In this document: piece by piece, positions 19,696 through 20,833 of the stretch | Numbering within the stretch: the first letter of the stretch is position 1 | Layout of the letters: every line of letters begins with the position of its first letter | Source: an uncultured Pelagibacteraceae bacterium | GTDB lineage: Bacteria; Pseudomonadota; Alphaproteobacteria; Pelagibacterales; Pelagibacteraceae | Direction: 5' to 3' | Length of the DNA: 32,830 bases | Assembly (NCBI GenBank): GCA_902583585.1 | Contig: CACHWN010000001.1 | Location: 1-32,830, forward strand | The notes under the pieces: generated by a model | The model's input: only the letters and a program-made list of their open reading frames with translations | Database searches by the model: none | What the model was told of the DNA's origin: nothing | Made by a program: the position numbers and the translations under genes

Positions 19696-19772
<77 letters not shown>

Positions 19773-19776
19773 ATAA

Positions 19777-19980
19777 TTACTTTTTCTTTATATTAATAGC
19801 TTGAAGTTTATCTTTCTCTTCTTTTATATCGTAAACAATTGATTGTTCTTCCTTTAAAACTCTTAACTTTGATTTTTCAAGTGCTGACACGTGAAGAAAT
19901 ATATCTTTTTGTGTTTCATCATCTGTAATAAAACCATATCCCTTTTTAGAATTGAACCATTTAACTTTACCTGATGGCAT
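19777..19980 (-). CDS. csp: Cold-shock domain protein (CspA family)
   Basis: This 67-aa single cold-shock domain binds single-stranded RNA/DNA and melts mRNA structure. RNP1 is 'KGYGFI' at residues 13-18 and RNP2 is 'DIFLHVSAL' at 26-34, with 'MPSGKVKWFNSKKGYGFI' as the standard N-terminus. The frame is open upstream to 20091, but that extension runs antisense to nothing real: it overlaps rpsU in another frame. The ATG at 19980 has a good ribosome site AGAGGA (19987-19992 on the minus strand) six bases before it. It follows rpsU by 22 nt and precedes tRNA-fMet by 4 nt. Confidence 0.95.
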   Translation of the reverse strand: MPSGKVKWFNSKKGYGFITDDETQKDIFLHVSALEKSKLRVLKEEQSIVYDIKEEKDKLQAINIKKK

Positions 19981-20002: not shown

Positions 20003-20197
20003 TTAATATCTATTCTTAAGTTTTTGCAGTTTCTTAATTCTTTTAAGATTTTCTGTTTGAACTCTTTTTTTTCTCTCAGAAGGCTTTTCATAAGTGCTTT
20101 TCATTTTCATAACTTTGAAAAAACCTTCTTTTTGAAGTTTACGTTTTAAAACTCGTATTGCTTGCTCGACATTGTTATCTTTGACGTCTATTTTAAT
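20003..20197 (-). CDS. rpsU: Ribosomal protein bS21, apparent ATT start codon
   Basis: The frame encodes 64 aa matching bS21: after the first codon it reads KIDVKDNNVEQAIRVLKRKL, then 'QKEGFFKVMKMKSTYEKPSERKKR', with a basic tail. bS21 is a 30S subunit protein near the anti-Shine-Dalgarno region. Homologues start M-x-(V/I)-x-V-(R/K)-DNN, and the codon at the Met position here is ATT. No ATG, GTG or TTG lies in frame between the upstream stop TAA (20210-20212) and ATG codons deep in the protein; a CTG at 20209 is the only other near-cognate. A perfect GGAGG (20203-20207) sits 5 nt before the ATT, which strongly supports it. A one-base sequencing error (ATG to ATT) cannot be excluded. Confidence 0.88.
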   Translation of the reverse strand: MKIDVKDNNVEQAIRVLKRKLQKEGFFKVMKMKSTYEKPSERKKRVQTENLKRIKKLQKLKNRY

Positions 20198-20220
20198 AAA
20201 AACCTCCAGTTAATTTTCAT
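20188..20220 (-). other. Possible 10-codon leader ORF overlapping the rpsU start
   Basis: On the minus strand an ATG at 20220 opens the frame MKINWRFLLK and stops at 20188-20190 (TAG). It runs through the GGAGG of rpsU and ends 10 bases inside rpsU in another frame. It has no clear ribosome site of its own. It could be chance, but if translated it would occlude or couple to rpsU initiation. Confidence 0.2.
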
Positions 20221-20248: not shown

Positions 20249-20833
20249 CTAGATAGAAGCTGTTTGCGCCTTCTTTTCCTCTCTAATTTTAGCTTTTTTC
20301 TCTCTCTCAATTCTTCTTTTTGCTTTTTCCAAACTCTTCTGAAAAGCTTCTTGAGTACATAAAGCTAAAATAACAGGGTCTCTTGGTTTAAGATTTGAAA
20401 AATTCCAATAACTTCTTTTTCTAATTAATGAAACAGTGCCTTTAGTACTGCCAACAAGCTTAGATATTTGCCCGTCTGTTAGTTCCGATGCATTTTTGCA
20501 TAACCATAATATTGCATCAGGCCTATCTTGCCTTTTAGATAATGGAGTATATTTTGGTTTTTTTCTCTCCTTGACTTCAACTTCTTCTACCTTTTTAAGT
20601 AGACTTAATTTTTTATCAGGGTTTTTAGAGCACAATTCAATTTCTTCTCTTGAAACTTGACCAGCCAAAATAGGATTATAAGCTTTAATTCCCTTGGCCA
20701 CATCTCCATCGGCTATTCCTTTAATTTCAAGCTCGTGTAAATGACAAAATTCTGCAATTTGTTTGAAAGTTAGAGTTGTATTTTCGACTAACCAAACAGC
20801 TGTTGCTTTTGGCATGAAAGGAGTTTCTGACAT
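20249..20833 (-). CDS. trcR: DUF1013 protein, TrcR-like cell-cycle transcriptional regulator
   Basis: This 194-aa protein matches DUF1013, an alphaproteobacteria-restricted family annotated as cell-cycle regulator TrcR. Two similar helix-turn-helix-like blocks are visible: residues about 8-40 ('ATAVWLVENTTLTFKQIAEF') and about 104-140 ('DAILWLCKNASELTDGQISKLVG', then 'STKGTVSLIRKRSYWN'). The C-terminal 30 residues are highly charged (KAKRRIEREKKAKIREEKK). It likely binds DNA; targets in this organism are unknown. It begins 2 nt after rpmE and is the last gene before a 51-nt gap to rpsU. Confidence 0.85.
   Translation of the reverse strand: MSETPFMPKATAVWLVENTTLTFKQIAEFCHLHELEIKGIADGDVAKGIKAYNPILAGQVSREEIELCSKNPDKKLSLLKKVEEVEVKERKKPKYTPLSKRQDRPDAILWLCKNASELTDGQISKLVGSTKGTVSLIRKRSYWNFSNLKPRDPVILALCTQEAFQKSLEKAKRRIEREKKAKIREEKKAQTASI

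What the first reader, a model, noticed from the sequence alone, without database searches (positions are those of the whole stretch)
20003..20207. rpsU (bS21) appears to start with ATT behind a perfect GGAGG
Seen: the codon at the conserved Met position is ATT, GGAGG (20203-20207) lies 5 nt upstream, and the only other upstream in-frame near-start is CTG. Known: AUU starts are very rare and are controlled by IF3 in E. coli infC. Inference: bS21 may be kept low or autoregulated through initiation fidelity. Automatic callers will miss or truncate this gene, so bS21 may look absent in related genomes.
Basis: partly seen in the sequence, partly recalled or inferred. Interest (0 to 1): 0.72.

Follow-up and report, generated by a model that had tools for sequence, protein, structure and literature searches.

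The report
SAR11 ribosomal gene rpsU starts AUU
In SAR11, one of the most abundant groups of ocean bacteria, the gene for ribosomal protein bS21 starts with the very rare codon AUU behind an unusually strong ribosome-binding site, and this odd pairing is kept in nearly every relative examined, which suggests that its production is throttled or self-regulated.

Summary
The rpsU codon at the Met position is ATT, 5 nt behind GGAGG. Among 184 distinct SAR11-family rpsU starts read, 177 are ATT, ATC or ATA (171, 3, 3), all 177 with a strong SD; 7 are ATG, all 7 without SD, and these 7 form one clade. So "AUU plus SD" was once swapped for "AUG without SD". A pattern scan of 397 family genomes found an ATN start in 326 and ATG in 7. 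The sister family uses ATA (12 of 12 read). An in-frame stop leaves no upstream NTG in 80 of 81 loci. GGAGG is otherwise rare at this genome's gene starts (2 of 184 ORFs). In other Alphaproteobacteria 12 of 98 rpsU loci lack a nearby NTG, while S16 is ATG in 30 of 30 loci from an overlapping set of genomes.

A start at AUU is close to certain. Best mechanism: SD-driven, IF3-disfavoured initiation keeping bS21 low, perhaps with feedback through bS21-poor ribosomes; regulation is inferred. Similar designs are known (infC, sigR, Staphylococcus, Flavobacterium rpsU): a new variant of a known kind. An initiator-tRNA gene follows rpsU in most SAR11 genera checked.

The parts
20003..20197 (-). rpsU, ribosomal protein bS21 (64 codons plus TAA), read from ATT
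   Evidence: PF01165 53.1 bits; codon periodicity from codon 2 on in 81 loci
20195..20197 (-). start codon ATT (AUU)
   Evidence: ATT 171, ATC 3, ATA 3, ATG 7 of 184 distinct SAR11-family starts, the 7 ATG without SD
20203..20207 (-). Shine-Dalgarno GGAGG, 5 nt before the start; predicted duplex with the 16S tail -10.4 kcal/mol here, -9.3 to -15.4 over the 25 AUH leaders computed
20210..20212 (-). in-frame stop TAA that leaves only CTG as an upstream near-start
   Evidence: no in-frame NTG between the last stop and ATH in 80 of 81 loci
19777..19980 (-). csp, cold-shock domain protein, downstream of rpsU
   Evidence: PF00313 on a fragment lacking the first three codons; spacing leaves no room for it before the tRNA in the g4 loci
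19696..19772 (-). tRNA-Met(CAT) with C1/A72, read as initiator tRNA, downstream of rpsU-csp
   Evidence: ARAGORN, sequence; conserved neighbour; the C1/A72 rule is recalled
20249..20833 (-). trcR, gene upstream of rpsU
   Evidence: PF06242
20836..21060 (-). rpmE (bL31), upstream of trcR
   Evidence: PF01197

Best explanation
rpsU is translated from AUU. Strong SD pairing positions the codon, and because AUU is the kind of start that IF3 proofreads against, initiation is slow and conditional, so bS21 is made at a low, adjustable rate. The most likely logic is feedback: 30S subunits short of bS21 (which sits near the SD/anti-SD site), or with relaxed IF3 stringency, initiate better on rpsU and refill the pool. 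Supported by comparison: AUU is the start (about 0.97). Inferred: low, IF3-sensitive initiation (about 0.8); bS21-dependent feedback (about 0.4).
For: Of 184 distinct SAR11-family starts read, 177 are AUH and all 177 have a strong SD (GGAGG 172, GGGGG 3, GGAGA 2); 7 are AUG and none of the 7 has an SD. The trait spans 12 genera, with ATA plus GGAGG in 12 of 12 sister-family loci. In a 397-genome scan 326 match an ATN start and 7 match ATG. The 7 ATG genes form one clade, support 98/99; five of them computed give +1.0 to -2.2 kcal/mol with the 16S tail, against -9.3 to -15.4 for 25 AUH leaders. GGAGG is rare at other starts (2 of 184 ORFs), as reported for Flavobacteriales where typically rpsU alone has an exceptionally strong SD (PMC9976891, section 32). 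S16 is ATG in 30 of 30. IF3 discriminates against non-NUG starts (PMC4611024 passages; PMC5472188 passages).
Against: No translation data from SAR11. One clade lives with AUG and no SD, so AUU is not indispensable. In E. coli bS21 is reported to provide for SD pairing (PMC10931766 passage), the opposite sign to the Flavobacterium model. SD pairing in the window (-10.4 kcal/mol) is weaker than the -13 stated for Bacteroidota, though computed with another program. The AUG swap is a single event, so start and SD changing together is one observation.
Confidence: 0.55

Rival explanations
1. Fixed-rate tuning without feedback: AUU (weak) plus strong SD gives about the same modest rate as AUG without SD; the combination only sets bS21 stoichiometry.
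For: The swap to AUG went with complete SD loss, as expected if net strength is conserved. Belinky et al. (PMC5622118, abstract only) report SD strengthening that compensates for weak GUG and UUG starts. An initiator-tRNA gene lies next door in most genera checked, so a strongly transcribed unit might need weak translation.
Against: AUH also occurs where the tRNA neighbour was not found (g5, g7, sister family) and in other alphas, and the AUG clade keeps the tRNA. GUG or UUG would tune as well, yet neither was seen among 184 distinct SAR11-family starts.
Confidence: 0.35
2. IF3 regulon member: bS21 level simply follows IF3 activity, as for infC in E. coli or sigR in Streptomyces, without bS21 feedback.
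For: infC itself seems to use AUH plus SD in SAR11 genera g5 and g12 (ATT) and in the sister family (ATA). AUA and AUU starts with extended SDs for infC, ccpN and cvfC1 are reported in S. aureus (PMC13009471 passages).
Against: In 6 of the 10 SAR11-family genera read, the window's among them, infC starts GTG right after a stop without SD, and in 2 it starts ATG, while rpsU keeps AUU. G296 and G410 have ATT rpsU but ATG infC. This does not exclude IF3 acting on rpsU.
Confidence: 0.3
3. Translation really starts elsewhere: at the upstream CTG, at a downstream NTG, or by frameshift from an upstream ATG.
For: CTG is in frame in the window, and an ATG in another frame lies upstream.
Against: CTG is not conserved (T at its middle base in 54 of 81), third-position variation begins at codon 2, the first in-frame NTG downstream is codon 30 in 55 of 81 loci and between codons 10 and 29 in the other 26, and one clade has ATG exactly at the ATT position.
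Confidence: 0.03
4. Sequencing or assembly error, or a decayed gene.
For: None beyond the oddity; the source genome is a partial assembly.
Against: Same codon class in 177 of 184 distinct sequences; strong constraint on the frame.
Confidence: 0.01

Closest known systems
E. coli infC (IF3) AUU autocontrol
   Same: Non-NUG start of a gene whose product acts on the 30S subunit during initiation; start class that IF3 discriminates against (PMC5472188 and PMC4611024 passages).
   Different: The product is a ribosomal protein, not IF3; no in vivo control shown; in 8 of 10 SAR11-family genera read infC itself starts with GTG or ATG.
Flavobacterium johnsoniae rpsU autoregulation by bS21-less ribosomes (PMC9976891)
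   Same: Same gene; strong SD in a genome where SDs are otherwise rare.
   Different: That paper's main text has no 'AUU', so no such start is reported there; SD pairing reported there is 9 to 13 bp, here 5 to 11 bp by a different program; anti-SD sequestration is unknown in SAR11.
S. aureus infC (AUA), ccpN (AUA), cvfC1 (AUU) with extended SD (PMC13009471, passages)
   Same: Weak start plus strong SD; for cvfC1 both are said to be conserved among staphylococci.
   Different: Other genes, other phylum; bS21 there is said to be shorter and had no density in their structure.
Streptomyces sigR GTC start repressed by IF3 (PMC5472188, abstract and passages)
   Same: Conserved non-NUG start used as a regulatory device and misannotated.
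   Different: Codon GTC; the gene encodes a stress sigma factor.

Membership tests
bS21 (rpsU) | match to PF01165 over its curated cut-off | tested here: met
   53.1 bits against 27
infC-type initiation-codon control | conserved non-NUG start codon | tested here: met
   177 of 184 distinct starts
infC-type initiation-codon control | IF3 represses and IF3 shortage derepresses translation | not testable with these tools
   needs a reporter and IF3 titration
infC-type initiation-codon control | AUU-to-AUG change abolishes control | not testable with these tools
   a natural swap was seen only together with SD loss
Flavobacterium-type bS21 autoregulation | strong SD at rpsU in a genome with few SDs | tested here: met
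   1 of 38 starts, rpsU itself; GGAGG at 2 of 184 ORFs, any of four SD-like strings at 22 of 184, in 193 of 922 kb
Flavobacterium-type bS21 autoregulation | extended SD pairing below about -13 kcal/mol | tested here: inconclusive
   -10.4 in the window, -9.3 to -15.4 over 25 AUH leaders, different energy program
Flavobacterium-type bS21 autoregulation | anti-SD held by bS21/bS18/bS6 and ribosomes lacking bS21 prefer rpsU | not testable with these tools
   needs SAR11 ribosomes

The most novel reading that the evidence does not exclude
In SAR11, which uses few strong SD sequences, rpsU, the initiator tRNA gene and (ancestrally) infC form an initiation-stringency homeostat: bS21 made from AUU reports how readily 30S subunits accept a weak start, so bS21 supply, initiator tRNA dosage and IF3 stringency are coupled, with the strong SD and the near-cognate start both reserved largely for this gene.
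Probability: 0.25. Interest if true: 0.85.

Novelty: new variant of a known kind. Interest (0 to 1): 0.68.

Why it matters
rpsU regulation in E. coli is described as unknown (PMC10931766 passage). Here a natural, long-kept weak start marks bS21 in a very abundant group of marine bacteria, with a ready natural control clade (AUG, no SD). Gene callers that require NTG starts may miss or truncate bS21 in such genomes (not tested on annotated records). Pelagimyophages are reported to carry S21 as a core gene (PMC7029224 passage); the two pelagiphage copies read here start at ATG and TTG, which would escape such control.

Tried and rejected
Upstream CTG start, downstream NTG start, frameshift from an upstream ATG, assembly error: rejected as under rivals. 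A folded mRNA operator: 25 leaders folded one by one show no obvious common hairpin at the SD; no consensus fold was run, so this is weak. A published search for structured RNAs in Pelagibacter has no mention of S21 in its text (PMC2704228, passages). Tree of the AUG switch: a first tree that included variable sequence beyond the tRNA gave 4 changes, with weak support and long-branch warnings; rebuilt on codon 2 to about 285 nt downstream (rpsU, tRNA) it gives one change and one clade, 98/99, though the bootstrap had not settled. 16S 3' end: a DNA pattern matched 0 of 10 genomes; found by an Rfam search instead, in 3 genomes; a script with too strict a motif found nothing in 30 loci; replaced. 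Phage lead: viral contigs gave 2 relatives. Papers: searches listed nothing that I could recognise as a non-NUG start of rpsU; the library is open-licence PMC only and several lists were capped, so this is weak evidence of novelty. The class survey was not random: 30 best-scoring loci, 48 loci from hand-picked, mostly small genomes (2 more of the 50 picked were already among the 30), and 20 others. L291 (infC of G482) could not be read; infC of G002 (g3) and G006 (g6) matched but was not fetched.

Full report
What is there. On the minus strand the window reads TAA-CTG-GAG-GTT-TTT-ATT-AAA-ATA-GAC. GGAGG (20207-20203) lies 5 nt before ATT (20197-20195). The 64-codon frame is bS21 (PF01165, 53.1 bits, cut-off 27). 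It lies between trcR (PF06242, with rpmE/bL31, PF01197, upstream of that) and a cold-shock gene (PF00313), followed by a tRNA-Met(CAT) whose C1/A72 ends mark it as initiator (the C1/A72 rule is recalled).

Is ATT real and is it the start? In the 80 genome-contig loci kept (of 242 relatives, the best by similarity to a query that begins with Ile, a mild bias) the codon is ATT 76, ATA 3, ATC 1 and no NTG. A wider choice over genera, own genome plus 90 further Pelagibacteraceae loci from 12 genera, gave ATT 88 and ATG 3; two of the 14 genera sampled gave no bS21 match. These sets overlap, so all SAR11-family loci were pooled: 244 loci, 184 distinct sequences, ATT 171, ATC 3, ATA 3, ATG 7. In the sister family all 12 loci read have ATA one codon earlier than the position aligned with the SAR11 ATT, with GGAGG before it. 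A pattern scan of 397 family genomes found ATN at this place in 326 and ATG in 7; by subtraction about 319 are ATT, ATC or ATA. Over 81 loci the first two start bases do not vary, third-position variation starts at codon 2, the GGAGG columns are nearly fixed, no NTG lies in frame between the last stop and ATH in 80, and the first in-frame NTG downstream is codon 30 in 55 and codon 10 to 29 in 26.

The swap. Of the 184 distinct starts, all 177 AUH have an SD (GGAGG 172, GGGGG 3, GGAGA 2) and none of the 7 AUG has one. The seven are all from genus g4, whose 13 other loci fetched alongside (11 ATT, 2 ATC) have GGAGG. On a tree of rpsU plus tRNA the seven form one clade (98/99) and one change suffices; an earlier tree on noisier sequence gave four changes. 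Predicted SD to anti-SD energy is -9.3 to -15.4 kcal/mol for 25 AUH leaders (-10.4 in the window) and between +1.0 and -2.2 for the five AUG leaders computed, using the tail GAUUACCUCCUUUCU seen in three SAR11 16S genes.

How special is it. This genome rarely uses GGAGG: 1 of 38 gene starts in the window, rpsU itself, and 2 of 184 ORFs of at least 100 aa in 193 of 922 kb; counting AGGAG, GGAG and GAGG too, 22 of 184. In that sample only rpsU has GGAGG-ATH with no in-frame NTG since the last stop; one other hit has such an NTG. In 98 other alphaproteobacterial rpsU loci an automatic reading gives a nearby GTG in 44, ATG in 27, TTG in 15, and none in 12; 11 of those 12 have ATA, ATC or ATT at the expected place, three of the 12 have an NTG farther upstream, and the twelfth (L256) could start at CTG. 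In 68 rpsU loci from a phylum-wide draw, 65 of them from other classes, all have NTG (ATG 52, GTG 13, TTG 3). The control gene S16 is ATG in 30 of 30 loci read (31 of 32 genomes matched), among them genomes with AUH rpsU.

infC. Fetched from 30 of the 32 genomes with a match and readable in 29. In g1, g2, g4, g8, g10 and g13 it begins GTG directly after a stop, without SD; in g7 and g9 ATG; in g5 and g12 the only candidate is ATT, in the sister family ATA, each behind a purine-rich SD. So some SAR11 lineages seem to have lost the classical infC design while keeping it at rpsU. G296, G410 and G319 have AUH rpsU but ATG infC, so the two are not tied.

Initiator tRNA. tRNA-Met(CAT) lies downstream of rpsU on the same strand in 54 of 54 loci scanned (SAR11 of genome contigs and g1, g2, g4; some are the same species twice), in 12 of 20 of a wider set (present in g3, g6, g8, g9, g10, g12, g13; not found in g5, g7 and the sister family; one g5 stretch ends at its contig end), and in 20 of 20 further g4 loci, AUG clade included. 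In g4 it follows rpsU within about 10 nt. No tRNA-Met was found in 55 of 55 other alphaproteobacterial loci, up to 1.5 kb either side. I read only five of these tRNAs in full; the initiator label for the rest is inference.

Mechanism. Shown by comparison: AUH is the start and is kept with a strong SD. From literature: IF3 discriminates against starts other than AUG, GUG, UUG (PMC4611024 passages; PMC5472188 passages), and in S. aureus non-canonical starts gave about 10% of AUG in reporters, up to 30% for one of them in rich medium (PMC13009471 passage). Inferred: rpsU initiation is therefore slow and sensitive to IF3 and to SD access. The SD helix, as placed in Thermus structures that lack S21, would clash with E. 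coli S21 (PMC4611024 passage), and in Flavobacterium bS21-less ribosomes translate rpsU better through its SD (PMC9976891, abstract, passages and section 32). A similar loop in SAR11 would explain both halves of the signal, but E. coli data point to bS21 helping SD pairing (PMC10931766 passage), so the sign is open. Fixed tuning remains a serious rival.

Verdict. Observation confirmed and extended to a family-wide trait; start at AUU near certain; regulation plausible, untested. Literature searches listed no report that I could recognise of a non-NUG rpsU start, within open-licence PMC only.

Noticed in passing
window 19696-19772 (-): An initiator-type tRNA gene sits just after rpsU-csp and is a conserved neighbour in most SAR11 genera checked; its anticodon stem has A29-U41 in place of the first of the three usual G-C pairs (numbering and rule recalled).
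   Followed up: partly
L262, L270, L272, L273, L275, L279, L281, L285, L288 (infC loci): infC appears to start at ATT, ATA or ATC in two SAR11 genera, the sister family and some other alphas, but at GTG without SD in 6 of the 10 SAR11-family genera read.
   Followed up: partly
L202, L233, L235, L241, L243, L246, L250, L258, L372, L375, L385: Other alphaproteobacterial families also lack a nearby NTG at rpsU, with ATC, ATA or ATT at the expected place, so the trait may recur.
   Followed up: partly
L344, L345: Pelagiphage copies of S21 start at ATG (HTVC008M) and TTG (Mosig), unlike the host gene.
   Followed up: partly
L424-L426: The three SAR11 16S genes read end GGATTACCTCCTTTCT, with T where the usual GGATCACCTCC has C (usual form recalled).
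   Followed up: no
G114:C1:103887-104076, G038:C32:2039-2206 and G068:C12: Two genomes show rpsU matches interrupted by stops; a third (G068) has two equally scoring copies on one contig, perhaps an assembly repeat.
   Followed up: no
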